62,948 nt of DNA from Coprinopsis marcescibilis. Its lineage: Eukaryota; Basidiomycota; Agaricomycetes; Agaricales; Psathyrellaceae. The stretch is taken from positions 1 to 62,948 of the forward strand of contig ML210328.1 of NCBI GenBank assembly GCA_004369085.1, given 5' to 3'. The position numbers were made by a program, and so were the translations under genes. Under the pieces are notes generated by a model that did not search any database, was not told the origin of the DNA, and was given only the letters and a program-made list of their open reading frames with translations. Numbering within the stretch: the stretch's first letter is position 1; every line of letters begins with the position of its first letter. Shown here piece by piece: positions 8,435 through 62,380 of the stretch.

Positions 8435-11400
8435 CTACACCCCAAAATGGACAAACGGTACCCAGCTCATACACGCCGCTCCCCGACTTCTCAGCTCCTT
8501 CACAGCGAGATACAACGCATACGCCGCATCTTCGATGTCAGGAGGACTTTCCCTCCCATTCCGAAACAAATACCTATAGAACACATCAGCCACAAATGGG
8601 GCATCCTCATCCCTAATTGACCTGGATCGCGAAGTCCACCGGGAATCGAGAACCACAGAAAATGGTCAAATTTCCCATTAAATTATAAATAAGGGAGTAG
8701 ACGCACCACATTGTGCCCACAACACCCCTGAATCCCGCAAACATTATCGTAGCCGCCAACGTAAGTGACTCATCCGGCCTCGCCTCATCTCCCATTGCGG
8801 TCTGACACGCACTCAAGTACGCAAGCGAGGCCAAACTTGTCCTGCGACCTTCACGTATTATCTTTGCCATCGTCAACGAACCTCCGCTGAGGAGGAGGCA
8901 GCTGTCGAGAGGACTGGTCGGATGCTGCACCCCGTGGCATCCGAAGTGGACTATCGACGCCCGCTGGATATCTTTGAGGACTGTGCTGGGATCAGTCGGA
9001 TTGGTGCTTGAACCAACGCGCGATGTCAGGTTCTCAAGGTTGGGAATGTGAGATTTGATGTTCCTCAGCTCGACAAGCGTCTTAGGAAGTGGACCAGCGC
9101 GCAATCCAGCCGCGATAGCCTCTGGTTCAATGACAGAGAGCATTTTGAAATCGCTGGAGATGGAAGGAGGGCGCTCCAGAAGATCTTGCGGCGAGTAGCA
9201 GTATGAGGAAATGGCGTAGTCGGAGATAGATATCCTAGTCTGCTCATCCCCGGTGTATATCCCCGCAGCATGGATCGGGACAAATGAAAACGCGCCAGTA
9301 GGACACCACCAAATTCTCTGGGGTGATGTATCCTGTAAGGCAGTATTTAGAAACAACATCACACTTTAATTTCTACAAGGACGCACCTTCTGAAGCTTCA
9401 GCGCATGTACTATAGGCTCAGCGGCAGAAATCCACAGCCATCGCAAAATTTCCTTGAAATCATCCTCAGCACTTCGGTTCCCCTTCGAGAACGCGCCTTT
9501 CAGCCGAGCTTCCCGTATAAACACGGGTTCAACCGATCTCCCACTTTCTGACCTGATTCTGTTTCCTAAAGATAGCTGCCGTGTCGCCCACTGTAGATAT
9601 TGAAGAAGATGATAGGTCATCTGGGGGAGTGGGACGTGCTGCAGGAGTCTGTCTGGTCCCATGACTATTGCGTCGCAACCATCACGGGTCGAGTTGAGAA
9701 CGACGATTGGACCTTTGCAAGCAGCATCCTTCAAAGCTTCGAACGATGGTGGTCGTAAAAAGTCCTCAAACCCTTCAATTTGCCGAACCTTGCTGATAAT
9801 TTCTTCGCGTTTACGTGAAAGGGCGAGGGCGCTGGTGGTGCCGTTGTTTACGGAGGTCGACATCTCTCCACTGCATTCTGTGTTCTCTAGCTTCTGCACA
9901 ATGTTGCGCAGGTCGTTGGCGAGCGTCGCATTGACTGATTCAAGTTCGTCCATAGGGCTCCTGATATTGAGCTCCTGGGACCAGAAGATTGAGCGAGCGG
10001 TTGAGGCGAACACGACGGCCGTTTCGAGATCTCCAGACTCGATGGCACAGCGAACAGCGTTGCTCGACAGGTCTTTTGCATGGACAAGAACGCTCTGTCG
10101 CTGCGCCATAGTCAAGTTCATGGACGAGAGGAGGGGAAGTAATTGAATCGCTCGCTTATGCGCGCGGAGCTCCACCGCAGGGCGCTTGTGTCGACTGTAC
10201 GCTGACCAGTTGTAGCAAGCCTGAAGTCGTTTCAACAGGGAGCCTGTTTGGTAATCGGATGCTGCGTCCAAGAGTTCAAGACATCTGTCGAGGTCGCTGT
10301 CATCCTTGCCAAAGTTAAACTTGATGTGATGGGCAGAAGCAAGGTTGTTGAGAGATGTTGTTCGAGCGGGCTTGGGTGTTGGCCTCAAGGCCAACGCTTC
10401 CTCGTGGAGCCTGATACACTCCTCGATGTCGCATAAATTGCTGAATTCTTGAAAGCGATATGATAAAGCGATGGCCAAGTTGTTGAGTGTCACTGGTCGA
10501 AGTGGGTTTGACGCAGGACGCAACTCAAGAACCTCTCGGTGGAGCGAGATACACTCCTGGAGGCTGTCCGGAGTTTTGCGATCCTCGAACAGGGATGCGA
10601 GTGCGGAGGCGAGATTGTGGAGAGACGTCGAACGGCTGTGGTGATGTGAAGGCCGTAACGCCAGGGACTCCCTATGCAGTTGAATCGATTCTTCAAGATC
10701 CTTCCCGTTGTTTCTCTGATGAAACCTCTTCCACAAATCCTCCGCCAGGTTTGTGAGAAAAATCGGACGATGCGACTGAGTCCATGAGGTCATTGTTGTC
10801 AAAGACTCTCTGCGGAGCGAAATCGATTCCTCTAGATCCTGAAAGTCTCCTCGGTAATTGAACCTGGTCGAAAGGGCTACCGAAAGGTTATTAAGCCAGA
10901 TCGGGCGCTTGGAATTGCGGCTTGCTGTGGTGGACAAAAGCAGCCTCCTTCCAATCAGGATCGATTCCTCCAAGTCCTCAAAATGACCCAGCTGTTTGAA
11001 ACGGGTAACAAGTGCGCTAGCGGTGTCGTTCAAGCAGGTCGTGTGGCTCTGGTGTTGGCTAGGGCAAAGCCTAAGTGACTCCTGGCAAAGGCGTACCCGT
11101 TCATCCAAGTCCAGAAGATCGCCCCGGTGAAGAAACCGAATCGAAAGCGCATTGGCGAAATGGTTCCGGGTAACGAAGGAATTCGGGTGAGGCGGCGGAG
11201 AAAGTGACACTGCCTCCCTAAGCAACTCGATACCCCTATTCAAATCTTCATCTCTTCTCTTCCTGTTGAACCGCTTTACTAGGGCTGCGGCCAACTGTCG
11301 TAGCGAAGCTGAGCGCCTTGGATGGGGAGGCGGACGGTGGTCCAAGGAAGAGGAGAAAAGTGAAATCGCCTCATCCAAATCGTCGGCATCACCGGCTATT

Positions 11401-12163
11401 GAACCGGCCCGAAGCATATCAATCGCTATCTTATCTTTCTTCGCGGCCTCCTTCCCATACCGCCTGTGATCTTCGTGTCCCTGGTTGCTCGTTTGCTCAG
11501 TGTATCTTAGCCAACTAATATGGCTACGATTTTGTGCGCAGATGTAGGTAAGTGTATGATCGATGGCCTGACTTAGTTCAATGTCCTGATAGTGTCGTTC
11601 GGCGTCGTCCAAATCCTTTGGTGCCCCTGTCCGAATATAGCGCAAGACGCATGCACGGCCTAGCTCCAAGGAGGTATGCGATGACATAACAGCATTGCCT
11701 GATGCTTTAAGTTGGACATCCATGAGCGCTATGTGGCCATTTAACACATCGAGGTCGACATCTTGACGGTATTCATCAATCCCGCTGATCACCCGGTTGA
11801 CTCCACTAGGGATATTCGTTGACGCACTCCCATTCCAGTGCTTAGCCTGCAATTCATGAGCACCTCACAATACCGATAATGAGCTACGCAACATACCATC
11901 AGTGCAAACTCGCGTTGCGTCGCATTGTCATATATGCTCGCACACTGCGCCAAATCCTCTGCCCATGCGTGGACGGCAAACCGAGTCAAGAGCCCTTTGA
12001 TCAACGCGCATTTGACGAAAGCTTTAGTCTCTGCAGTGGTCTCATCCCGAATGATATTGTGTGCCAGATCCAGTGCGTTCTCCAGAGTTTGAAACTTCTC
12101 CCCAATGGTGTCGATACTACTCGGCGCCTCGAAGATTTGACGTTTGAGCCGTAAATTCTTCAC
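8435..12163 (-). CDS. TPR-CHAT protein (caspase-like CHAT domain)
   Basis: Minus-strand gene with exons 11897 and up, 9387-11846, 8707-9332 and 8435-8621; all splice phases match. The 820-codon exon holds a long array of TPR-like repeats of about 42-44 residues with the pattern LEESI.L.RESL..., R...LNNLA.AL..RF. The C-terminus is a CHAT domain: GPIVVLNSTRDGCDAIV, then WWCPTGAFSFVPIHAAG. The presumed catalytic His is in HFGCHG and the Cys in YLSACQTA, followed by GFRGVVGTMWSIRDEDAPFVAD and a closing WVPFVHFGV. CHAT domains are caspase-clan (C14-type) protease folds. Agaricomycetes have many TPR-CHAT paralogues of unknown substrate, and bacterial relatives act in defence. The 5' exon is unresolved: coding sequence is open at 12163, but its only ATG candidates lie at about 12238 and 12260 beyond an unplaced intron. 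Likely cytosolic. Confidence 0.85.
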
Positions 12164-17996: not shown

Positions 17997-20900
17997 ATGG
18001 GCCGTGCATCTCGAGCAGCTCTTGCTGCTGCAACAAAATCTTTCACTTGCTCGCAGTGTGGCAAACACTGCCGGTCACAGTGGGGCCTCAAGCAGCATAC
18101 TAACGCCCTCCATGGGCAACCCACAGCTCTCTTGGAAGACGGAGAGATCGAAGCAACCGTCAAGCAGTTCCACCCAAGACTGACAGGTGTGTACCTCCCT
18201 ATCGTCTCATTGTAGTCTTTGCTCTAACTTTAAGTCACACTCATTCAGGCATTCCTGTTGATGCCTCTGGAAACCCTCTTCCTCGACACATAGATCCAGC
18301 AGCAGCTAACGTGCTCGACCCCACCAATCAATGGTCACCTTTTCAAAACCGGCATAGCTTTGACTTCGCTCACTACCACTTCGTCGAGGTTCAATCGTCT
18401 GCCGGTCAGATTAACAAAGCTTTGGATCTCTGGCGTGCTATAGCCATCAACGCAACCAAAGATCCTAACAATAACAGTGCTGCTTGGGCATGCACAAAGG
18501 ATATGTACCAGTCAATTGATGATATTCAGCAGGGCTCCGCACCATTCCAGACTGTGTTCATTAAATATTCAGGCCCTCTTCCGGAGAATCCACTGGCCTG
18601 GATGCTTGAGACATACGAGCTTTCTGTTCGTGATGCACGCCAGGTGCTCCACCAGCAGCTCTCCACTACCAAGTTCGCTGGCGAATTTGAAACAAGACCA
18701 TACCACCAGTTCGAAACATGTGGCGATAAGCAGAGAGTCTGGTTGAACCTCATGTCTGGCGATTGGGCATATGAAGAGGCGGTAAGGACCTAGCCCGTAG
18801 ACCTATAAAATTTTACTCATAACCTTTCTCTCAGGACACCATATATAATGAGGTGGAGGGCAGCGAAGGTGCTATGCTTGTCCCAATCGTCTCCGGCACC
18901 GATAAGACCACTGTATCTGTTGCAACAGGACACCAGGAGTACCATCCATACTACATCTCAGCTGGTAATCTCACAAACACTGCCCGTCGAAGCCATGGGA
19001 GTGGCATAATTCCTGTTGCATTTCTCCCGATACCAAAAAGTTAGCTCTCTGTTACCCACTGCTCTACCTGAGCTCACAACAGTTCTCTACAGCGGTAAAA
19101 TCCGAAAGAAAGACTGCTTGTTACACCCTTTTCAATGGTGGAACATGAGGACGGTTACGTATTAACAACAGATGAGTGTCTCGAGATACAAGTAGATTAT
19201 TTTCAAAGATTGGGATTGTTTGATTACGAATCGGTAGATACTTCTTACTGATTTTTCGGGTTTTAAAGAGTATTTTTAGGAAGATAAGGAACACGAGGAG
19301 ATGACATAGTAGTTTTTATTTATAGAAAGATAACGGATGGAACTTATCGATAACATCGATAAGAGATAAGGGTAGTATATTTAAACTTACCATAGTTGGT
19401 AGTTGTACTTTAGTTTCGATCTCGTTTCTCTTTTGTAACTCGATAGTTTACGAATAAGACTTTGTTAGTCTTCTCGTCGACGGATCGTCTCACTCAAACA
19501 CTTCCAAAACTCAATCGTCTCGACATTAGTTCGTCTCGACTCTCTCGACCAACTCGTTTATCTCGACGATCTATCATCTCGACTCTATCAACATTTATCA
19601 TTTGGCGACTAAGGCGTACTATTCGCCTTGCGTCGTAACACTGCTACTTATCAATGATTCATCAGGCAGATGTATCATGCTTGCATAGGCCGTATTTTCG
19701 CACTGCTGCGCCATTGGATGACCAACCCAGATATTGTATGGTGCCCAGATGGCCACTATCGGAGGGCGATATACAGTATTGGACCAGTGATCGCCGATTA
19801 TCCAGAGCAAGTATGGCTTGCATGCGTCGTTCAGAACTGGTGCGCTAAGTGAGTACAATCTATTTTCAATTTCAATTTTCCGGATTGGACCTGTAGTATC
19901 GCAGCACTGATATAAAGCCCAGGTGTGATGCAAAGCACGACGATCTCAATAACCCAAATGCTGGCCGACGAACGCATGAGAAGACTGATATTCTCCTGGA
20001 GTGCTTTGACCCTACCATTCTCTGGAAGTCATTTGGAGTCCGAGCAGATGTCGTTGTGAGCATGATTAGTTTCTACTGTTCCTCGCAAGTCTGATTATTA
20101 TATTTAGCCGTTTACCTACTACTATCCTCATGCTGACATCCACAAGCTTATGGCACCCAATCTCCTCCATCAACTGATCAAAGGAACGTTCAAAGACCAC
20201 CTTGTTACATGGGTTGGGGAATACCTTGTTGTGAAGCATGGCTCAGAGGCTGAAGCTAACAAAATCATAGCTGAGATTGATCGAAGGTATGTGTCGATCT
20301 TGTTTCTTGATTACAGGCCATCGAACCTAATTTTTATAACAGAGTATCCGCTGCCCCTACATTTCCAGGGCTTCGTCGATTTCCAGATGGGCGAGACTTC
20401 TCTCAGTGGACTGGTGACGACTCAAAGGCATTAATGAAGGTATAGTAAGACGAATTCACTGCGATGGGATATACTAACAACAAATAGGTGTATCTTGCTG
20501 CAATTGTAGGATTTGTCCCAGATGACATGGTCAAGTGCATAGCAGCGTTCCTCAATGCGTGCTACATCTTCAGGAGAAATGTCATTACCTGGGCTGCACT
20601 TGAGCTTGCTAAGCTCGAACTAGCCAAATTCCATGCATACCGTGAGATCTTTATCGAGACTGCCACACGGACGACATGTGCGATACCTCGACAGCATGCA
20701 CTTGCACATTTTCCCCACTCAATACAGCAGTTCGGGTCACCAAACGGTCTCTGCTCATCTATTACCGAGTCAAAACACATCGCTGCTGTGAAAGAGCCAT
20801 GGTGAAGATCAAACTGTTATAATGCCCTCTCGCAGATGCTTGTCACAATCACCCGGCTTGACAAACTCCACGCTCTTCGCCAGATCTTTGCTGAGTATGG

Positions 20901-26758: not shown

Positions 26759-27277
26759 TTAGGCGGCTGGTCCATGCGCTCGCCGAATGGCATCTGAACA
26801 CCACGTAGTGGGCGCCGTGTCCATCTTGCAAATAAACCTGAACTGGTCCGTGCGTAGCTGAGGTCCACCCTGTGATTTGAGAAAATCAAGCATTTGGAGG
26901 AGTAAGTCTCGATCCTTTTGAGTCACTGTAGTTGCGGTGCGGACTTTTGGGTGATTGGCGTCAACCTTGGGACCATCTCGCTTATATGGAATTCCTTGAA
27001 GACCGAATAGAACATGAGTGGGTCCAGGTTGAATCTTCGTTTTTGTGCCTGTGACTTTGGGGTTTATGCACCGGATCGCTGGATACAGGTGTGTGAGTGG
27101 CATCTTTGGTTGAAAAAGCAACGTACGAGGTATTGCTGGCATAGACTGTTTCACTTTGCTGGGCCGACTATCTCTCCAAAGTCCGTATGCAGCGCAGGCG
27201 TGAATGATAGTTGTATCTTCCAGCTTGCGGATGTCAGCCAACATTGCCTGGATATTGTGCTCATGTCGGTGGGACAA
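26759..27277 (-). pseudogene. Two-module family, truncated single-module copy
   Basis: Minus-strand copy with the family start (DIRKLEDTTIIHACAAYGLWRD and KVKQSMPAIP), then a stretch that looks like an unspliced intron. After it come THVLFGLQGIPYKRDGPKV and TQKDRDLLLQMLDFLKSQGGPQL. It degenerates after FRFICKMD, where other copies read FKFTWKVQEFP, and module 2 is absent. It is most likely a truncated pseudogene, though a short expressed protein cannot be excluded. Confidence 0.6.
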
Positions 27278-29454: not shown

Positions 29455-30600
29455 CTACAGCTTCTCTTGGCGGCCTCTTCCTAGGTATGGAGATGAAGGA
29501 CAGCTAAACCTACAAAGTGAAATGGGGAGCAATTGTGTACCCATGTTGCGCTCTAGCAATGGGCCACCTTCTGCCTTCATGAGACGCAGAAAACGTGCGA
29601 GCGTCTCCATATCCTCTGGAGTCTCCATATGAACAGAGCTATATTGCGGGCTACTGGGGTCAATTTGAGTCTTCGACTTGTACTGAACCCCTTTGACCAG
29701 GAAACAGGTGTCGCGCGGCCCATTAGAGTCCATTACATGTCCTTGGTCCGGATTTTTCTGCAGACGCACTGTTTAAAACGCGTACGTCAATTGTGGAATG
29801 ACAGTGGGAGATCAATGAAATCGCATACGCCATGGCCACGGTACGTCTTTTCGCTTGTGTGCTGGCTACACCATCCGTTTACGTCGAATCCCGATTTACA
29901 TGTCTGTTTCTAGTGTTCCTCGGCACTATGCAAGGAGAGATGCCACCCATTGCCTCTTCCACTCACATGTTATTTGCTCTGAGAGGGATTCCATACAAAA
30001 ACAGAGATGTCAAGCTAGACTCCATTCACCGCAACTATCCCAGTGTCACAAACAGACCCAAAACGATCGTGACAGACTACTTCAAATGCTCGATTTCATC
30101 AAATCTCAACAAGGCCCTACACTGCAACCAGAGACGTTCAAATTTTCATGGAAGGTCCAGGAGTTTCCTGTCGGAACGTTCCCAGGGAAATTGGTATGTC
30201 AGCCACTTCCCGCAACCAGCATGATTGTGGATGAATCTGGTTGCTTCAACTCTAGCGGCACGAACGCCAGCCCGACATGTTGTGCAGTGTATACAAGATT
30301 TCAAGCGAGACCATGAAAGAGATCATGAATGCAACACCTGGTTTCCAGTCAATACAAGGCATCCTTGAGCCGTTCTATGACTTAATGGTGTGGAAGGCGA
30401 GGCTCCCTATACTTGCGACATATACCGGGCATCGGTTTCCTAACTCTCGCGGTCTGTGTGTCCCTCCAAATTCTGTAGCTAGCGCCAGCGTTGTTTACAG
30501 TTGCATTGTCAGGTGGGCAGTACTTGGACATAATGGCTCGAACGTGTGGCAAGACCCTAGTATTTGGACGGCAAGTCATGTCAAAACACTCAGTAATCAT
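29455..30600. pseudogene. Rearranged mosaic of two-module family fragments
   Basis: Three fragments lie in mixed orientation. Minus strand 29455-29769 has module 2 (GPRDTCFLVKGVQYKSKTQID, MEDMETLARFLRLM-like). Plus strand about 29920-30200 has module 1 (THMLFALRGIPYKNRDVKL), then a single-base deletion that shifts the frame before QNDRDRLLQMLDFIKSQQGP, followed by a piece of module 2 (AVYKISSETMKEIM). Minus strand 30382-30600 has the family N-terminus (MSKYCPPDNATVNNAGASY). It cannot encode one protein and is best explained by inversion of parts of nested or tandem copies. Confidence 0.75.
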
Positions 30601-42870: not shown

Positions 42871-45800
42871 ATGGACGCTCTGAAGCGTCCTTTCGTGGCA
42901 CTTGCCCTTGCTTTACCGGTTCTCGCCCAGTTAGGCTCCTGGACACAAGGTAATGCCCCACTTTATTATCCGATATTGCGCGAAATACTGACATCGTGTC
43001 TAGGTGGAGCTCATGACTGGAATGGCGAGTTGGCTTCCCAAAACGGTCTCCCTCTTGAAGTCGCTCCACTCGCTGGCTCCACACACACCCTCTCGCGTCG
43101 CCAGGCTCCCAACTGCAACGCACCTGCTGTTCTTCCTGGAGTCAACACGACTCGCCTCAACAATCCTTTCGTCTTCTTGGACGGGAGGGCGGTTCGGGAT
43201 GAAGATGACTGGGCGTGTCGTCGTCAAGAAATCGCCGACCTCTTCCAGCGTGTAGAGCTTGGAACCCTTCCTCCTGCCCCTGTAACTCTCACCAGCTCAA
43301 TTTCGGGAACGACTCTCACAATCAACGTGGCAAGCAGCAATGCAACGACATCTTTTACCGCTTCTATCGAATACCCCGCAGGGGACGGACCGTTCCCAGC
43401 TATAATCGGCATCGGAGGCTCGAGTCTTCCTCCCCCCGCAGGAGTCGCCGTTATCTCCTTCAATAACCGCGAGATCGCCTTTGACAGCGGTCCTATCGGT
43501 CGCGGTCAAGGAAAATTCTATGATCTGTACGGTGCCTTTCACCCAGCTGGCACTTTGCTGGCTTGGACTTGGGGTGTCAGCCGCATCATCGATGGTTTGG
43601 AGCGTGCCACAAACTCGAGGATCGACACTACCAAGATCGCCGTTACCGGTTGCTCGGGTGCAGGAAAGGCTGCGTTGGTCGCTGGTGCCTTCGAACCACG
43701 ACTTGCTCTCACCATCCCTGTTGAGTCGGGAGTCGGAGGTGCCGGATGTTGGAGAATCTCCGAGGATCTCAAGGCCACCATCCCCGCAACCATTACCGCC
43801 TTCGAACTTGCCAACTCGACCACCTACTTCTCGACCACGTTCAACCCGTTCGCCAGCCGGGTCCCAACCATCCCTCTCGACCACCACTTGTTGGCGTCGT
43901 TGGTTGCCCCTCGCGGTCTCCTGGTTCTCGATAACAGCCAGTTCACGTGGTTGGCCCCGCAATCCGTCTATGGTTGTATGTTGACCGCCAATGGTGTGTA
44001 CCAGGCACTTGGTGTCGGCGATAGGTTGGGTATCTCCATCGTTGGAGGACACGATCACTGTGTCTTCCCTGGTCAACAATACCCCGAATACCAAGCGTAC
44101 ATCAACAAGTTCTTGCGAGGAATCGAGACGGAGAATACGAATGTCATCAAAACTGATGTTCCCAACAATGGTGGCTTCGATCAACCCCGATACGTCAACT
44201 GGACCATTCCCAACTTTCTTCCCTTGCCGGATCCTCCTCCGATCCCCACGCCCGGTATTTGTGATGCGCCTGCGAACCTCACGCTCACTGCCAATCCTCG
44301 TCTCAACAACCCCTTCACCTTCCTCAACGGTTCGGCCGTCACTACCTCGGACGCTTGGTACTGTCGTCGCCAGGAAATTGGCAGCCTCTTCCAGAGGTAC
44401 GAGCTTGGCTATCTTCCTCCACCAGGCGCAACAGTCAGGGGTTCGCTCTCCGGAACCACCCTCACCGTCGCTGTCTCCGACAATGGCCGCAACATTTCCT
44501 TCGACGCTCAAATCACCTATCCAGCCGGCAACGGGCCGTTTGCAGCCTTCATCGCCATCGGTTCCTCCTCCATCCCTGCCGCAGCTGAGATCGCCACCAT
44601 CACTTTCAACCCTGGCGAGATCGCTCTCGACGATACTGGAGATGTTCGCTTCGAGGGTAAATACTACCAGCTTTACGGGTACCAAACCGCCGGTGTCTTG
44701 TTGGCTCATTCGTGGGCTGTCAGTCGCATCATCGACGCCCTGTCTTCGACGCCCAACACTAGGATCGACTTCCTCAAGCTCGGTGTGACAGGTTGCTCGA
44801 CTAACGGTAAAGCAGCGTTGATCGCCGGAGCCTTCGATCAGCGTATCTCTCTGACTCTTCCTGTCGAATCTGGTTCAGGAGGAGCAGGATCTTGGAGAAT
44901 CTCGGACGAACTCGCCCGCACCGGGACACCCACCATCACCGCCGGGGACCTGGCCAACGGAACCGCATACTTCACTCTACTCTTCAACGAGTATGCTCCT
45001 CAGGTCCCTCGACTTCCATTCGATCACCACCTTCTCTCCGCCATGGTCGCCCCGCGTGGTCTCCTTATCTTGGACAACTCGCAATACCCGTGGCTTGGTC
45101 CGCAATCCGTCTTTGGAGCTTCGGTGACTGCCAACAAGGTCTATCAAGCTCTCGGCATCAAGGATCGTCTCGGTGTCTCAATCGTCGGAGGACATGACCA
45201 CTGTGTCTTCGCTGGACAGCAGTACCCCGAGCTCCAGGCTTACATCAACAAGTTCTTGCGAGGCATTGCTACCGAGAACACCGATGTTATCAAGATCGAC
45301 CTTCCTAACAATGGTGGATTCGACGAGGCCCGCTGGATTGACTGGACTGTTCCCAACCTTGTCGGTGGCCCGCCTCCACCCCCGCCCCCGCCTCCTCCAA
45401 TTGGTCAGCCACCACCAGGTTTCTGCGCACCACCACAGAATCTCACCCTTGTCGCCAACCCCCGGCTCAACAACCCCTTCCTGTTCTTCAACGGTTCCTC
45501 GGTGACCAGTTCGGATGCTTGGTATTGCCGACGAGGAGAGATTGCAGACCTCTTCCAGAGATATCAGCTCGGCTACTTCCCGATCCAACCTACAGTCACC
45601 AGCACCCTCTCCGGCAACACACTCACCATCAACGTCGCCGCCAACAACCGCACTATCACGTTCAACGCTGCCATCACCTACCCGACTGGCAATGGACCTT
45701 TCCCAGCGATTATCGGCATCAGCGGGTTGTCGCTCCCTGCAGCGCCCGAGATCGCCACTATCACCTTCAACGCGAGCGAGATCGCTGTAGATGGAGGCGC

Positions 45801-48800
45801 GAACGTCAGGTTCGAGGGCAAATTCTACGACCTGTATGGGATCTACCCCGCTGGTGTTCTTACTGCCTGGGCCTGGGCTGCGAGTCGTGTCCTGGACGGT
45901 CTCTATGCCGTCGGCGCGAGCACGCGGATCGACACCCAGAAGGTAGGCGTCAGTGGTTGTTCCGCCCCCGGTAAAGCAGCCCTCATCGCTGGTGCTTTCG
46001 ATCAACGTTTCGTCCTCACCATCCCCGTCGAGTCTGGGTCTGGTGGTGCAGGTGCATGGCGTATCTACGACGAGATTGCGAGGACTGGTGGGCAGACGAT
46101 CACTGCTGGGAATATCGCCAATTCCACGGCGTACTTTTCCCTCGCGTTCAACGAGTTTGCTCCTCAGGTCCCTCGACTCCCCTTCGATCACCATCTGTTG
46201 TCGGCTATGGTTGCCCCACGAGGTCTCCTCGTACTCGATAATTCGCAGTATCCCTGGCTTGGACCTCAAGCTGTGTTCGGTTCGTCGGTCACGGCCAACA
46301 AGGTTTTCCAGGCCCTCGGGATCAAGGATCGTCTCGGTGTATCTATTGTGGGCGGACACGATCATTGTGTTTTCCCTGGCCAGCAGTATCCGGAGTATCA
46401 GGCGTTCATCAACAAGTTCATGCGTGGCCTGACGACGGAAAATACGGACGTCATCAAGATCGATCTTCCCAACAACGGTGGATTCAACGAAACTCAGTGG
46501 ATTGACTGGACAGTGCCGAATTTGGTCGGTACCACGCCTCCTCCTCCACCACCACCACCGCCTCCACCGCCACCTCCTCCACCGCCAAGTTTCTGCCCCG
46601 CTCCGGCAAACCTCGCACTGGTCGCCAACCCGAGACTCCCCAATCCCTTCGTGTTCGCTAACGGTAGTGCAGTCGCAACTTCTGCGGATTGGCCATGTCG
46701 ACGAGCAGAGATTGGAGACCTCTTCCAGAGGTATCAGCTTGGGTACTTCCCCATCCAACCCGTCGTTACCAGCACGCTCTCCGGCAACACGCTCACCATC
46801 AACGTCGCCGCCAACAACCGCACCATCTCTTTCACCGCGGCAATCACATACCCAGCAGGCAATGGACCGTTCCCAGCGATTATTGGTATCAGTGGGCTAT
46901 CGCTCCCTGCGCCGCCCGAGGTCGCTACTGTCATTTTCAACGCGGGTGAGATTGCCACGGACGACGGAGCCAACGTTCGTTTCCAGGGCAAGTTCTACGA
47001 CTTGTACGGGGCATACCCTGTTGGTGTGCTCAGTGCCTGGGCGTGGGCCGCCAGTCGAGTTTTAGATGGTATTTCCGCTGCTGGAGCAAGCTCGCGCATC
47101 AACCTCCAGCGAATCGCCGTCTCTGGTTGCTCCGCTCCCGGAAAGGCTGCCCTCATCGCCGGTGCCTTTGATCAACGGTTCGTGCTCACCATCCCTGTCG
47201 AGTCTGGCTCTGGAGGAGCTGGAGCTTGGAGAATCTACGACGAGATTGCGCGGACTGGAGGACAGACGATTACTGCTGGGAATATCGCCAACTCTACGGC
47301 GTACTTCTCCCTGGCCTTCAACGAGTATGCTCCTCAGGTCCCTCGACTGCCTTTCGATCACCATTTGCTGAGTGCCATGGTCGCCCCTCGTGGTCTCCTT
47401 GTTCTCGATAATTCGCAGTACCCCTGGCTTGGACCTCAAGCTGTGTTTGGTTCGTCGGTTACGGCCAACAAGGTATACCAGGCTCTCGGTATCAAGGATC
47501 GTCTTGGTGTCTCTATCGTCGGTGGGCATGACCATTGTGTCTTCCCTGGCCAGCAGTATCCGGAGTATCAGGCGTTCATCAACAAGTTCATGCGTGGGTT
47601 GACGACAGAGAATACGGACGTGATCAAGATCGATTTGCCTAACAACGGCGGCTTCAACGAAGCTCAGTGGATCGACTGGACGCTCCCGAATTGGGGTGGT
47701 ACTACACCTCCTCCTCCTCCACCTCCACCGCCGCCACCACCACCGCCACCACCTGTCCCAGGCTTCTGCCCCGCTCCGGCGAACCTCCCATTGGTGGCCA
47801 ACGCACGACTCCCCAATCCTTTCCTGTTCGCGAACGGAACTTCAGTCACAAATGCGGCCGATTGGACATGTCGACGAGCAGAAATTGGTGATCTTTTCCA
47901 ACGCTTCCAGCTCGGTTACTTCCCAGCCCAACCAACCGTCACGAGCACGCTCTCCGGCAACACCCTCACGATCACCGTCGCCGCCAACAACCGTACCATT
48001 TCTTTCACCGCGGCCATCACATATCCCGCTGGAAACGGACCATTCGCAGCGATCATTGGTATCAGCGGTTTATCACTGCCTGCGCCGCCCGAGGTCGCCA
48101 CCGTCATCTTCAACGCTGGAGAGCTCGCCAGGGACGATGGAGCGAACGTTCGCTTCGAGGGCAAGTTCTACGACTTGTACGGCACATACCCTGTTGGTGT
48201 CCTCAGCGCTTGGGCGTGGGGTGCCAGTCGAGTTCTGGATGGTCTCACCGCCGTCGGAGCAGCCTCACGCATCGACGTCCAACGGGTCGCCGTCTCTGGT
48301 TGCTCGGCTCCTGGTAAAGCCGCCCTCATCGCCGGTGCCTTCGATCAACGATTCGCGCTCACCATCCCTGTCGAATCTGGCTCTGGTGGTGCAGGTGCAT
48401 GGCGTATCTACGACGAGATTGCACGCACGGGTGGGCAGACGATCACGGCTGGCAACGTCGCCAACTCCACGGCGTACTTCTCCCTCGCGTTCAACGAATA
48501 TGCTCCTCAGATCCCTCGACTCCCCTTCGATCACCATTTGCTCAGTGCCATGGTCGCTCCTCGTGGTCTCCTCGTACTCGATAACTCGCAATATCCCTGG
48601 CTCGGTCCCCTCGCTGTGTTCGGCTCGTCTGTCACCGCGAACAAGGTTTACCAGGCCCTCGGCATCAAAGATCGACTTGGTGTCTCTATTGTTGGCGGAC
48701 ACGATCACTGTGTGTTCCCCGGCCAGCAGTATCCCGAATACCAAGCCTTCGTCAACAAGTTCTTGCGTGGCCTCACGACGGAGAATACCGACGTCATCAA

Positions 48801-51260
48801 GACCGACCTCCCCAACAACGGTGGATTCAACGAAGCTCAATGGATTGACTGGACAGTCCCGAATTTGGTTGGTACTACGCCTCCTCCCCCACCTCCTCCT
48901 CCACCACCGCCTCCTCCAAATCCTACCGACTGCACGGCTCCTCAGAACCTCAACCTCGTCGCCAACCCTCAGTTTAACAACCCCTTCGCATTCTACAATG
49001 GCTCCCCAGTCGCGACCTCTAATGACTGGTATTGCCGACGCACGGAATTGGCGGACTTGTTCCAGCGTTTGGAGTTCGGTTACATTCCCCCAAAGCCTAC
49101 AACCGTCACCGGTACCCTCTCTGGCAGCGCGCTCACCGTCTCTGTAACCAACTCCGGCCGCAGCATCTCCTTCGTCGCCAACATCACATACCCTGCAGGA
49201 AACGGTCCCTTCGCCGCCATCATCGCCATTGGTGGTACTACGCTCCCGCCCCCTCCTGAGATCGCCATCATCACCTTCGACAGCAACGAGATCGCCCTTG
49301 ACCGTGACGCCAATAGTCGCTTCCAGGGCAAATTCTACGATCTTTACGGTCAGAATTCCGCCGGTATTTTGTCAGCGCGGTCATGGGCTGTTAGTCGACT
49401 TATTGACGCCCTCGAAACCGTCCCCGGCAGGCGAATCGACCTCAACAGACTCGCTGTCACTGGATGTTCGGGAGATGGTCGGGCTGCGATGGTCGCTGGT
49501 GCTTTCGAGCAGAGGATTGCTCTTACCATCCCCGTCGAATCTGGTACCGGTGGAGCTGGTTCTTTCCGTATCGCCGACGAGATTGCTCGTACTGGCGGTC
49601 AGACCATCACTGGTGGATACCTCGCCAACAGCACGGCGTACTTCTCCTTGTCGTTCAACGAGTGGGCCCCTCAGATTCCTCGACTTCCGTTCGATCATCA
49701 TCTTCTCGCTGCCCTCGTCGCTCCTCGTGGACTCCTCGTCCTCGACAACAGCCAGTTCCCATGGCTCGCCCCCGCCTCCGTCTACGGCTCTATGGTCGCG
49801 GCAAACAAGGTATATCAAGCTCTTGGCATACGGGATCGTCTTGGTGTTTCCATCGTCGGTGGTCACGATCATTGTGTCTTCGCTGGTCAACAATACCCAG
49901 AATTCTCCGCGTTCGTCAACAAGTTCCTCCGGGGCATCACCGCAGAGAGCACCAACGTCATCAAGAGCGACTTGCCGAACAACGGTGGCTTCGAAGAGTC
50001 CCGCTGGATCAACTGGCAAATTCCGAACCTTGTCGGCACGACTCCTATTCCACCCCCGCCCCCGCCTCCTCCGCCCCCTCCACCGAACCCCACTTGCGGC
50101 GCTCCTACAACTCTCGCATTGACTACCAATCCTCGTCTCACCGACCCCTTCGCCTTCTTGGATGGTACTCGACGAGTCAGCAATGTCGGTGATTGGTATT
50201 GCCGTCGTCAAGAACTCACGGAGGTCATTCAGCGTTTGGAAACCGGCGCTATCCCAGAGAAGCCCCAGACTGTTACCAGCTCTCTCTCCGGCAGTGCACT
50301 CACCATCAACGTCTCGCATCAAGGGAAGAGCATCTCGTTCATTGCCAACATCACCTATCCTGCCGGCAACGGACCTTTCCCGGCAATCATCGGTATTGGC
50401 GGCGCATCAGTCCCAGCTCCACCTGAAGTCGCGGTCATCACCTTCAACCAGAACGAGATCGCTCGGGATGCCGGAGGAAACGTTCGATTCGAGGGCAAGT
50501 TCTACGACCTTTACGGCCAACACTCCGCCGGCATCTTGGCTGCTTGGACATGGGCCGTCAGTCGAGTCATCGATGGTCTTTCAGCTTCGTCGACCAGGAT
50601 CAATGTCGACAGGATCGCTGTCACGGGCTGCAGTGCTGCCGGGAGGGCCGCTTTGGTAGCGGGTGCCTTTGACCAGAGGATTGCCCTGACGATTCCTGTA
50701 GAGTCTGGAACCGGTGGTGCTGGATCGTTCCGTATTTCCGACGAGCTTTTGCGTGGTGGTGCTGCGATCATAACCGGTTTGGAGCTTGCCAGAAACAGCT
50801 CATACTTCTCGCTGTCGTTCAACGAATGGGCTCCTCAAGCTCCACGCCTTCCGTTCGACCACCATCTCCTTTCTGCGTTGGTCGCTCCTCGTGGTCTTCT
50901 CGTTCTGGACAACAGTCAATACCCATGGCTCGGGCCGGCCAACGTCTACGGCACTTCGATTGCGGCCAGTCGCGTCTATCAAGCACTTGGTGTTCGGGAT
51001 CGGATTGGTATCTCCATCGTCGGCGGTCACGATCATTGCGTCTTCCCAGGCCAGCAATATCCCGAGTATCAAGCCTTCGTCAACAAGTTCCTGCGTGGTC
51101 TCACGACTGAGAATACCAACGTCACCAAAACTGATGTTCCAAACAACGGAGGCTTCGTCGAGTCTCAATGGATTGATTGGACCACTCCAGCACTGTAAGT
51201 TATTTCCCTTCTCTTGGTTTAGTTCTATCTAACATTTGTTCGTCCTCCAGTCCATCGTAG
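42871..51260 (+). CDS. Secreted protein with seven tandem CE15 (glucuronoyl esterase-like) domains
   Basis: Start ATG at 42871 in an ideal context (GCCGCCATGG). The N-terminus MDALKRPFVALALALPVLAQ is a signal peptide. Two introns are predicted. 42950-43003 (54 bp, GTAATG...CTGAC...TAG) is a multiple of three without a stop, so it is easily mistaken for coding. 51195-51250 (GTAAGT...CTAAC...CAG) gives the true C-terminus ALPS. The spliced protein is about 2,757 residues. Seven domains repeat every 388 residues or so, with nucleophile serines at about 244, 625, 1013, 1403, 1794, 2182 and 2570. Each has WYCRRQEI-like, GNGPFPAIIGI, GKFYDLYG, the GCSxxGK/R elbow, IPVESGxGGAG, LPFDHHLL, APRGLLVLDNSQ and GGHDHC. 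CE15 enzymes cleave ester bonds between lignin and glucuronoxylan outside the cell. Linkers are proline-rich, up to 17 prolines. All seven elbows lack the usual Arg, so activity is uncertain. Confidence 0.93.
43111..51194 (+). repeat. Array of seven CE15-like repeats with proline linkers
   Basis: Approximate units: 43111-44220, 44260-45360, 45421-46530, 46590-47695, 47762-48870, 48930-50040 and 50092-51194. Units 3, 4 and 5 are the most alike, and units 6 and 7 pair together (GSFRI.DE). Unit 1 is the most distinct and the only one with both extra cysteines. Linkers after units 2 to 6 are nearly pure proline; the linker after unit 1 is shorter and mixed (LPLPDPPPIPTPG). The pattern implies stepwise duplication from an ancestral single-domain esterase. 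Confidence 0.92.
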
Positions 51261-59369: not shown

Positions 59370-60620
59370 TTATGAGCACAACATTTGCCATCAGCGGGTT
59401 CGCTGTCAAAGCAATAGACTTCATACGCATTATGACATTAAGTAATTCCCGCCGTCAAAGCCATAATGTCTAGATACTACCAACCGCAGAATGCCACCAT
59501 TATTCACGCTGGCGCAGGCTATAGATTTGGAGAGACGATCAACCCACTAAAGTGCAGAAATAATTGCACGAAATATGCAGTAGGCTCTTTTAGAATCCAG
59601 TTTCAGACTAAAGGTTTTGACCACCCTTCGGTTTTCTTCGGTGCTATGGTCCGCGGCGCCAGGAGCCAAACCACCCTCTGCGCCCACCCACGTCATATTC
59701 GCTCTGAGAGGGATCCCATTGGGAGATAACGATGACAGGATTGATTCCAACCACCCGTCTTATCCCATCGTGACTACAGAAACCCAAAGCGATCGAGATA
59801 GACTTCTCCAAATGCTCGAATTTATCAAAGCACACCAAGGCCCAAAGCTAGGACTAGGGCGTTTCCAATTTACATGGAAGATTCAGGAATTCCCGCAGGA
59901 CACGTTTGTGCAGCGATCGGAATGTTGGATTTCCCTTGTTTTAAGTGACGTCGTGCCAATGATCGTTCACATCTATAGAGCCCTGAGCGACACCCTGAGC
60001 AAATGCTTTGCTGTGCATACAGAATCTCCAATGAGAGAATGTGGGAAATCCCTAAGGCAACGCCGGTCTTGAAATCAATACAACTCCTCGACGAGCCATA
60101 CCACAATTTTCTGCAGTGGAGGCGGTTACTTTCCGCAGACAAACGAAAGGATGCCCCCCGCACATGGTGTAGGTGGCATTCTTGTTCAGTTCCCAGCTTC
60201 TCGCAGCCAACGAATTGTCGCAGCATGCATGGCAGAGTCGTCGTCGACCAAAGACGAGCAGTAGGACCCCAACGGACCCCGCGACACTTGTTTTCTCATC
60301 AAAGGAGTCAACTTTCGATCCATGTCGCAAATGGACGGCCCCAACCATCCTCACTATAGCTACCTCCATACAGAAACCTCAGGAGATCAAGACGCACTCG
60401 ACCGCCTTTTGCGACTCATCAAGGCGAGGGGGGACCAATGTTGGAGCGCAAGGACTTCCGATTCGGATGTATCCTTGCTCCTCATCTGGCCGCGGTACGC
60501 CATGCCTCCCCTTGTTGGATGCACAACATTGAAATTTTCCTTCTAGTTCGAAGCCCGAGACATGATGTACGCCGAGGCCAGAAATCAGTCGAAAACGTCG
60601 AACACAGACTACACTAGTTT
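59370..60620 (+). pseudogene. Two-module family member H, decayed
   Basis: Begins MSTTFAISGFAVKAIDFIRIM at 59370, then a 4-base insertion shifts the frame before MSRYYQPQNATIIHAGAGY. A one-base loss and a TAA follow in the next 60 bases. Module 1 is well kept (THVIFALRGIPLGDNDDRI, TQSDRDRLLQMLEFIKAHQG, FQFTWKIQEFPQDTF). Module 2 has CAYRISNERMWEIPKAT, a TAG before DPNGPRDTCFLIKGVNFRS, and another frame change at about 60428 before PMLERKDFRFG. With several disabling changes, this is a pseudogene. Confidence 0.8.
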
Positions 60621-61117: not shown

Positions 61118-62380
61118 ATGAGTGCATGTCCTATTGAGAATGACACTGCTCCCACACCAAAGACGATGTATGCTGCCAGTGGCTTCGCCGTGACATTGGT
61201 TGACTTTATCCACATCATGGCGGAGATTCCCCCTGCTCGAGTCATTATGTCCCGATTCTGCCATCCTGACAATGCCACTGTGAACCACGCCGGCGCTAGC
61301 TATAGGATTTGGAGGGATGGGCAGACCGCGAGAGTCAGGAAATCAATGCCTGATATATGTTGTAAGTATTTTATTTATTCGATTACGATGAATCTCGCTT
61401 ACCTTTTTGCTGCTAGTGTTCCAGGGTGCAGCGCCAGGAGAGATGCCACCCAATGCCTCTACCCACATCTTATTTGCTCTGAGAGGCATTCCGTACAAAA
61501 ACAGAGATGTCAAGATGGACTCCACTCATCGCGACTATCCTGCTGTCACAAGACAGACCCAAAATGATCGAGACAGACTACTTCAAATGCTCGATTTCAT
61601 CAAATCTCAGCAAGGCCCGACACTGCGACCAGAGCGGTTCAAGTTTACCTGGAAGGTTCAAGAGTTTCCACAGGGAACCTTCCCTGGTAAATTGGTATGT
61701 CTGAAATCCTTCGCTATTTTAATGCGCGTGAAACTAATTGTTTCACAGAGGCCTGAAGCGCAACCGCGCATGTTATATGGTGCATACAAGATCTCAAACG
61801 ACACCATGAATGAGATAGCCAGGGCAACGCCCAGTCTTCAATCCTTCTCTTTCACGGACCAGGCGTTTTACAACTGTTCGGTGTGGAGGGCAAAGCTCCC
61901 GGCACACAAGCGAAAGGATGTGCCCCGAGCATGGTGTATGTGACCTTTTTGCGTCTCTCAGACAAATCAGGATTAACGTGTGCCTTCGAACAGCGTGCCA
62001 GCAGCAACCAACGCCCGAAGGGCAGGACTTCGACCTCAATGCACCGCGCGACGTCTGCTTCCTCGTCAAAGGGGTCGACTATAGAGCGGAGTCACAAACA
62101 AAAGACCCTAGTGACCCGCATTACAGCTATCTACATACCGAAAGCTCCGAGGACATGGACACACTCGATCGTTTCTTGCGCGTCATCAAGGACGAAGGCG
62201 GCCCATCGTTGGAGCGGAAGGATTTCAAGTACGGATGCGCGCTTGGTCCCAATCTCGCTACGGTATGTTTCATCCTCTCATACCGGAGAAAAATCGCTGA
62301 TTCTAGTCTTACCATAGATGCAATCGCAAGAGAGGGTATTTATGGCGTACAAGATGAGGCCCGGAATCCGATATGTGTAG
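61118..62380 (+). CDS. Two-module family member I (best preserved)
   Basis: Five exons (61118-61361, 61417-61694, 61749-61935, 61994-62262 and 62318-62380) with consistent phases, encoding 346 residues from MSACPIENDTAPTPKTMYAA to GIRYV. An N-terminal amphipathic segment (YAASGFAVTLVDFIHIMAE) precedes module 1: HAGASYRIWRDGQTARVRKS, THILFALRGIPYKNRDVKMD, TQNDRDRLLQMLDFIKSQQG and FKFTWKVQEFPQGTF. Module 2: MLYGAYKISNDTMNEIARAT, WRAKLPAHKRKDVPRAW, VCFLVKGVDYRAESQTKD, YLHTESSEDMDTLDRFLRVI and GPSLERKDFKYG. Both modules share the order helix with WR..LP, F.L+G+.Y, then D...LDRFL..IK...GP and an aromatic strand, so the protein is an internal duplication. No function assignable. Confidence 0.7.

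What the first reader, a model, noticed from the sequence alone, without database searches (positions are those of the whole stretch)
42871..51260. One secreted protein with seven tandem CE15 domains
A single open frame of 8.3 kb encodes seven glucuronoyl-esterase-like domains with a 388-residue period, joined by proline-rich linkers behind one signal peptide. The fungal CE15 enzymes I know have one catalytic domain, sometimes with a CBM1; I know of no seven-domain chain. Such a chain could act as a built-in multivalent scaffold along lignin-xylan surfaces, or could be processed at the linkers. No carbohydrate-binding module is visible.
Basis: partly seen in the sequence, partly recalled or inferred. 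Interest (0 to 1): 0.92.

Follow-up and report, generated by a model that had tools for sequence, protein, structure and literature searches.

The report
Seven-headed secreted esterase-like fungal protein
A mushroom gene encodes one very long, apparently secreted protein with seven copies of a wood-degrading-esterase fold in a row, all keeping the catalytic residues but with part of the active site rebuilt, which suggests a many-headed enzyme with a changed job rather than a classical glucuronoyl esterase.

Summary
Window 42871-51260 (+) is one gene with two inferred introns: a 2759-residue chain, a predicted signal peptide and seven CE15 (PF22244) units 381-391 residues apart, joined by six proline-containing linkers, no CBM hit. 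An assembly expansion is unlikely: units are 61-90% identical, no exact internal repeat of 60 nt, dN/dS 0.06-0.18. The genome matches Coprinopsis marcescibilis. Tandem CE15 chains are already in databases: 8-9 units in C. cinerea, 2-3 in other Psathyrellaceae; I found no paper on them (and nine other searches). Main new result: every unit keeps Ser-Glu-His, but all seven, and all eight of one C. cinerea strain, lack the CE15 signature oxyanion arginine and two pocket residues (Gln, Glu) kept in 108-113 of 116 rows of single-domain fungal-type relatives. The arrays sit in a well-supported arginine-less clade. Arginine-less bacterial CE15s have very low model-substrate activity. Best reading: a multi-headed CE15-fold esterase with a remodelled site, probably not an efficient classical glucuronoyl esterase. 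Substrate, secretion and product size are untested.

The parts
42871..42927 (+). predicted signal peptide, 19 aa
   Evidence: hydropathy peak 2.75 over residues 8-18 and small residues at the end; no dedicated predictor available
42928..43101 (+). short pro-region ending in a dibasic RR (residues 58-59), interrupted by intron 1
   Evidence: dibasic list; VRR before the first Cys of the C. cinerea protein
42950..43003 (+). intron 1 (54 nt, frame kept)
   Evidence: the spliced GSWTxGGAHDW matches C. cinerea P0001/P0002
43093..44214 (+). CE15 unit 1, profile envelope (Ser codon 43654, Glu 43723, His 44056); keeps all six conserved cysteines
   Evidence: groups with unit 1 of C. cinerea (75% identity)
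44233..44259 (+). linker 1, proline-containing (overlaps the profile envelope of unit 2)
44230..45360 (+). CE15 unit 2 (Ser 44797, Glu 44866, His 45199)
45370..45399 (+). linker 2, 10 prolines
45394..46524 (+). CE15 unit 3 (Ser 45961, Glu 46030, His 46363)
46537..46587 (+). linker 3, 17 prolines
46558..47691 (+). CE15 unit 4 (Ser 47131, Glu 47200, His 47533); unit whose fold was predicted
47707..47754 (+). linker 4, 16 prolines
47731..48867 (+). CE15 unit 5 (Ser 48304, Glu 48373, His 48706)
48880..48918 (+). linker 5, 13 prolines
48895..50031 (+). CE15 unit 6 (Ser 49468, Glu 49537, His 49870); Lys217 position is Arg
50050..50085 (+). linker 6, 12 prolines
50062..51194 (+). CE15 unit 7 (Ser 50632, Glu 50701, His 51034); Lys217 position is Arg
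51195..51250 (+). intron 2 (56 nt)
   Evidence: GTAAGT...CTAAC...CAG by eye
51251..51260 (+). last exon, chain ends ...ALPS and stop TAG

Best explanation
The gene encodes one secreted, extended chain of about 287 kDa (after the RR site, unglycosylated) with seven CE15-fold alpha/beta-hydrolase heads on proline-rich spacers. Each head keeps a complete Ser-Glu-His triad and is probably an active esterase, but the pocket was rebuilt before the long arrays arose: the signature oxyanion arginine and the Gln and Glu of the glucuronate pocket are gone, and several neighbouring positions carry the same new residue in nearly all heads of two species. I expect weak or no activity on classical glucuronoyl esters and a changed ester substrate on plant cell-wall polymer, with the many heads giving avidity for an insoluble surface in place of a cellulose-binding module. 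The number of heads grows and shrinks by in-frame unequal exchange between neighbouring units. Shown here by sequence and model: the gene, the fold of unit 4, the triad, the arginine loss, the clade, purifying selection between units, copy-number differences between relatives. Inferred: secretion, catalysis, changed substrate, avidity, the exchange mechanism.
Against: No activity, expression or secretome data were found. R268A in OtCE15A keeps about a tenth of kcat/Km because Km also falls, so loss of the Arg alone need not abolish glucuronoyl esterase activity. Arg-less CE15s are common among the bacterial-type hits (86 of 113 rows). The same genome keeps four single-domain CE15s with the classical site, which fits a new role but does not prove one. 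The residue roles of Gln259, Lys217 and Trp310 are recalled, not read. The two-unit model was poor (pLDDT 67.6, pTM 0.48), so nothing is known of how heads are placed. Two-unit relatives with Ser to Gly units show that units in this clade can go non-catalytic.
Confidence: 0.6

Rival explanations
1. Seven-headed classical glucuronoyl esterase: each head cleaves lignin-glucuronoxylan esters as CuGE does, and tandem heads raise local activity.
For: Fold and triad as in CuGE, StGE2, Cip2; Trp310 kept in 7 of 7 and Lys217 Lys in 5 and Arg in 2; dung fungi are rich in CE15 (PMC5329029, sections read in part).
Against: GxSRxGK signature absent in 7 of 7; Gln259 and Glu267 lost in 7 of 7, in a group where carbohydrate-recognition residues are called almost invariant (PMC7039992).
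Confidence: 0.18
2. Non-catalytic or covalently trapping multi-point anchor: weak or stalled acyl-enzyme heads hold the chain, or the fungus, on glucuronoxylan or another ester polymer.
For: OtCE15A R268A was crystallised covalently linked to glucuronate (7b7h title) and accumulates the covalent intermediate (PMC8933493 passage); two-unit relatives have lost the Ser in one or both units; 7-9 heads would favour avidity.
Against: Full triad kept in all 15 array units and purifying selection between the seven window units; glucuronate-pocket residues are lost, so binding of that sugar should be weaker.
Confidence: 0.1
3. Polyprotein: the chain is cut at the linkers into seven single-domain enzymes.
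For: Extended linkers are often protease-sensitive (general knowledge).
Against: The 11 dibasic pairs lie in the signal peptide (residue 5), at the end of the pro-region (58), in the CRR of each of the seven units, and at residues 2169 and 2416 inside units; none is in a linker.
Confidence: 0.08
4. Assembly or gene-model artefact.
For: Repeats are prone to collapse or expansion; the C. cinerea Okayama model has a broken eighth unit, and a separate 338-aa fragment lies on a 3.7 kb contig (P0128).
Against: No exact repeat of 60 nt within the gene; an open frame of 8.3 kb; relatives in two strains of C. cinerea with 8-9 units.
Confidence: 0.03

Closest known systems
C. cinerea 'Cip2' tandem proteins (P0001, Okayama 7, 3438 aa; P0002, AmutBmut pab1-1, 3132 aa)
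   Same: Same architecture, N-terminus, RR before the first unit, proline-rich linkers, Arg-less units; unit 1 groups with window unit 1 (75%); 66% identity in the best local alignment, which covers the whole query.
   Different: Nine (one broken in the model) and eight units instead of seven; inner units fall outside the clade of window units 2-7; seven of eight AmutBmut units keep the third cysteine pair.
Three-unit CE15 proteins of Coprinellus micaceus, Candolleomyces aberdarensis, Ephemerocybe angulata (P0008, P0009, P0011) and Coprinopsis sp. MPI-PUGE-AT-0042 (P0007)
   Same: Three CE15 units in one chain; units 1 and 3 of the first three, and all three of P0007, are Arg-less.
   Different: In the first three and the metagenomic P0010 the middle unit keeps Arg, Gln and Glu (4 of 4), so remodelled and classical heads alternate; P0007 unit 3 has lost Ser and His.
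Two-unit CE15 proteins, some with CBM1 (P0012-P0016)
   Same: Their units in the trees fall in the Arg-less clade (unit 1 of P0016 was too broken to include).
   Different: Unit 1 has Ser to Gly in all five, and both units in P0012 and P0014; CBM1 listed for P0013, P0014, P0016.
Single-domain fungal glucuronoyl esterases CuGE, StGE2, Cip2 (CE15-B)
   Same: Fold (rmsd 1.2-1.5 A), triad and the cysteines of the active-site disulfide.
   Different: They have one CE15 unit and the GxSRxGK arginine; Gln259 and Glu267 are changed here.
BeCE15A-Rex8A and OtCE15B (bacterial CE15 without the arginine)
   Same: Natural CE15s lacking the oxyanion Arg; triad kept in BeCE15A (PMC8417218 passages).
   Different: Phe or Tyr at that position rather than Ala, Gly or Thr; one CE15 unit in BeCE15A-Rex8A; bacterial.
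CkXyn10C-GE15A of Caldicellulosiruptor (PMC8280721, start of abstract seen)
   Same: CE15 in a long multimodular chain.
   Different: One CE15 with a xylanase and five CBMs, not a homogeneous array.

Membership tests
CE15 / PF22244 GCE_fung | Match to the family profile above its curated cut-off | tested here: met
   7 of 7 units, 270-297 bits each against 27
CE15 / PF22244 GCE_fung | CE15 alpha/beta-hydrolase fold | tested here: met
CE15 | Signature motif GxSRxGK in the nucleophile elbow (Ernst 2020, PMC7039992) | tested here: not met
   GCSGAGK, GCSTNGK, GCSAPGK three times, GCSGDGR, GCSAAGR: Arg in 0 of 7. Accepted bacterial CE15s also lack it, so I still file the chain under CE15 by profile and fold, not as a classical fungal glucuronoyl esterase
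Fungal CE15-B | Catalytic acid Glu at the PVES/PQES position together with Ser and His | tested here: met
   Ser, Glu, His in 7 of 7
Fungal CE15-B | Near-invariant 4-O-methyl-glucuronate recognition residues (R271 and E324 in CuGE, read; Gln259, Lys217, Trp310 in StGE2, recalled) | tested here: not met
   R214, Q259, E267 equivalents each 0 of 7; Trp310 7 of 7 and Lys217 5 of 7, Arg in 2
Glucuronoyl esterase (activity) | Hydrolysis of glucuronoyl esters | not testable with these tools
   no assay
Tandem CE15 chain of Psathyrellaceae (described here) | Two or more CE15 units in one chain, with Arg-less units of one clade | tested here: met
   lineages

The most novel reading that the evidence does not exclude
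The arrays are a new functional class within CE15: many-headed, arginine-less heads that either hydrolyse a different cell-wall ester or form long-lived acyl-enzymes, so that one secreted chain clamps itself covalently and at many points to hemicellulose, with clamp length tuned by strain-to-strain gain and loss of heads.
Probability: 0.12. Interest if true: 0.85.

Novelty: new variant of a known kind. Interest (0 to 1): 0.58.

Why it matters
Repetition of a whole secreted enzyme seven to nine times in one chain is, to my knowledge, rare, and here it goes with a rebuilt active site that predates the long arrays. The window species, C. cinerea and the shorter relatives form a natural series (2, 3, 7, 8, 9 heads; Ser-less, classical and remodelled heads) in which the value of multivalency without a binding module, and the role of the CE15 oxyanion arginine in nature, can be tested directly in a genetically tractable mushroom. 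It also warns that some fungal proteins now named (4-O-methyl)-D-glucuronate--lignin esterase may not be efficient ones.

Tried and rejected
Assembly stutter: judged unlikely from unit divergence and repeat length; no reads were available. Other families: Pfam also lists Bmp just above its cut-off (26.4 against 24.1 bits) with no single stretch passing, and BD-FAE, AXE1, PETase, ITAM and a toxin helical domain below their cut-offs; I read these as chance or as fold kinship. Recent homogenisation of units by gene conversion: not supported, dS is 0.87 or more for every pair. Two-unit structure to see head placement: model too poor to use. Plasmid records: 18 with a match, 5 shown, at most 39% identity among those shown. 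Literature: ten searches; no paper of the held library has 'tandem CE15', 'multiple CE15 domains', 'two CE15 domains', 'CE15-CE15', 'tandem glucuronoyl esterase' or 'repeated CE15'. Other wordings and papers outside the library were not covered. PMC5329029 notes a CE15 group (18) found only in C. cinerea, with 'unique structural properties'; section 5 and the first parts of sections 8 and 9, which I read, do not mention tandem chains.

Errors of mine: the row own_C53_72k was a cut copy of C53_74k, and three minus-strand paralogues were missing; repaired this. The clade test was given 38 rows and left out two Arg-less rows (P0213, P0230) that fall inside the clade, so its strong rejection does not bear on the 40-row clade; I rely on the fork support. 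The hypergeometric value (0.015) uses a pocket list recalled from memory and is only indicative. In one search the 110 classical rows were chosen for having the Arg and more than 330 residues (11 of 121 rows dropped), so R214 is 110 of 110 there by construction; the unfiltered figure is 113 of 116. In one search the Okayama rows, CspMPI2_u2 and the two C36 pieces were left out of the tree.
Full report
What is there. The open frame runs from 42871 to 51198. Removal of intron 1 yields an N-terminus that lines up with the C. cinerea protein. Pfam finds seven PF22244 stretches and no CBM; in the genome search the seven units score 270-297 bits each. Catalytic serines lie 381-391 residues apart. 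The chain after the RR site is 2700 residues, 286.6 kDa before glycosylation, with 30 cysteines: six conserved ones in unit 1 and four in each other unit. Units 2-7 have lost both cysteines at the C244 and C319 positions; that these pair as a third disulfide is recalled from StGE2.

Real or artefact. No stretch of 60 nt is repeated exactly in the gene and seven 50-mers are. Units are 61-90% identical in protein; the closest, units 3-5, have dS near 0.9, the other pairs 1.4 or more, and all 21 pairs have dN/dS between 0.06 and 0.18. The units have diverged for a long time under purifying selection.

Whose gene. The genome is 36.3 Mb in 448 contigs. Its paralogue at C53 96 kb is identical, over the aligned part, to P0156, named Coprinopsis marcescibilis, and both contig lengths are 178563. 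A published figure for that species is 38.91 Mb (PMC10182949 passages), so the size does not agree exactly. The full-length protein itself was not returned by the database search, so I cannot say how it is annotated.

Relatives. Full-length search: six hits, of which two are C. cinerea proteins at 66% identity with the whole query covered, 3438 aa (Okayama 7, named Cip2) and 3132 aa (AmutBmut). Three-unit search: three-unit proteins in Coprinopsis sp. MPI-PUGE-AT-0042, Coprinellus micaceus, Candolleomyces aberdarensis, Ephemerocybe angulata and one metagenome; two-unit proteins in Candolleomyces eurysporus, E. angulata, Coprinopsis sp. and three metagenome proteins. Of the 246 proteins fetched have two or more units or clear remnants of them, and three more (P0198, P0213, P0230) look like out-of-register pieces. 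The named ones belong to Coprinopsis, Coprinellus, Candolleomyces and Ephemerocybe, genera of Psathyrellaceae. Each search scored only about 8000 best candidates, and searches listed 120 of 135 and 120 of 1223 hits, so tandem proteins elsewhere could be missed.

History. Unit 1 of the window, of C. cinerea and of Coprinopsis sp. form one clade (100/100), while window units 2-7 form another (100/99) that holds no C. cinerea unit: an ancestral tandem gene whose inner units were multiplied, or replaced each other, independently in each species. The two C. cinerea strains differ by one unit; AmutBmut unit 6 matches Okayama unit 6 up to residue 260 except at residues 39 and 196, and Okayama unit 7 from residue 249 on without a difference, as expected of one unequal exchange between neighbours. 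A collapsed assembly could produce the same hybrid, and the Okayama model is broken in its eighth unit, so this needs reads.

Active site. All seven units keep Ser, Glu and His. The CE15 signature GxSRxGK, described as unifying both CE15 subgroups (PMC7039992 passage), is absent: the residue after Ser is Gly, Thr, Ala, Ala, Ala, Gly, Ala. Gln259 is Ile in 7 of 7 and Glu267 is Ser, Gly or Asn. In C. cinerea AmutBmut the same three are lost in 8 of 8. In the comparison set of single-domain fungal-type proteins (P0130-P0246 without P0198; 118 rows, 116 with the Ser column filled) Arg is kept in 113, Gln in 110, Glu in 108; the set includes unnamed metagenome proteins. Of 130 positions invariant at 90% in 110 Arg-bearing rows, 10 are lost in the 15 array units; six of these (R214, G218, Q235, Q259, E267, W270) are pocket residues or lie within three residues of one in sequence, the other four (offsets 152, 156, 304, 337) I did not place. 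Seven of the ten have one replacement in 13-15 of 15 units; R214, Q259 and E267 are replaced more variably. Simple decay would scatter more; I read this as a rebuilt and then conserved pocket. Among the fungal-type rows in the trees, the Arg-less ones form one clade (100/100, 47 rows; 100/99, 40 rows) except P0217 of Panaeolus and own C53_36k, which look like separate losses.

Against over-reading. Arg-less CE15s are not unknown: of 113 rows for the bacterial-type proteins P0003-P0006 and P0018-P0126, 54 have Phe, 32 Tyr and 27 Arg there; many of the Phe rows look like near-copies of one Bacteroides eggerthii protein. BeCE15A (Phe) and OtCE15B (Tyr) have very low activity on model esters, and putting Arg into BeCE15A abolished it (PMC8417218 passages). 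In OtCE15A, R268A cuts kcat about 80-fold on benzyl glucuronoate but Km also falls, leaving about a tenth of kcat/Km (PMC8933493 passages). So the prediction is weak or altered activity, not none.

Own genome. Besides the array the search found nine single-domain CE15 loci (a lower bound): four with the full classical site (C53 96k and 99k, C16 34k and 44k), C53 74k with Arg but without Gln and Glu, three others on C53 with changed catalytic or pocket residues (72k Ser to Trp and His to Gln; 33k Glu to Asp and His to Leu; 36k Arg to Glu), and one in two pieces on C36 with Ser in place of Glu, which I take for a CE15-A type. Classical activity is therefore probably covered elsewhere.

Mechanism. 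Structure prediction places unit 4 on Cip2, CuGE and StGE2. The simplest account is a secreted string of seven esterase heads on proline spacers, using repetition for surface avidity where many single-domain relatives have a CBM1, with a pocket changed for another ester or another way of presenting it. No dibasic site lies in the linkers, so a Kex2-cut polyprotein is unlikely. Catalysis, substrate, secretion and chain integrity are inferred and untested.

Novelty. I found no paper on tandem CE15 chains in the held library; the sequences are in databases under names such as Cip2 or (4-O-methyl)-D-glucuronate--lignin esterase. I rate it a new variant of a known kind.

Noticed in passing
G000 contig C53 (178563 bases), about 33-100 kb: Six single-domain CE15 genes on one contig; three have changed catalytic or pocket residues (Ser to Trp with His to Gln; Glu to Asp with His to Leu; Arg to Glu), at least two perhaps pseudoenzymes beside classical ones.
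   Followed up: partly
P0012, P0013, P0014, P0015, P0016 (related proteins): Two-unit CE15 proteins, some with CBM1, whose first unit has Gly in place of the catalytic Ser in all five, and both units in two of them; possibly CE15 folds turned into binding modules.
   Followed up: partly
P0001 and P0002 (C. cinerea strains): One-unit difference between strains with a hybrid unit; eighth unit of the Okayama model is broken, and P0128 on a 3.7 kb contig looks like a stray unit piece.
   Followed up: partly
P0008, P0009, P0010, P0011: Three-unit proteins alternate remodelled, classical, remodelled heads; the classical middle units form their own clade.
   Followed up: partly
window 8613-11852 (-): TPR-repeat open frame followed by an open frame with a CHAT domain.
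   Followed up: no
window 18311-18793 (+): Piece of a Plavaka transposase.
   Followed up: no
window 26759-27277 (-), 29855-30316 (+), 59617-60072 (+), 61407-61943 (+): Four short frames that share a motif like RDRLLQMLDFIKSQ, an unnamed repeated family near the gene; the two tested (59617, 61407) have no Pfam match at E 0.001.
   Followed up: no
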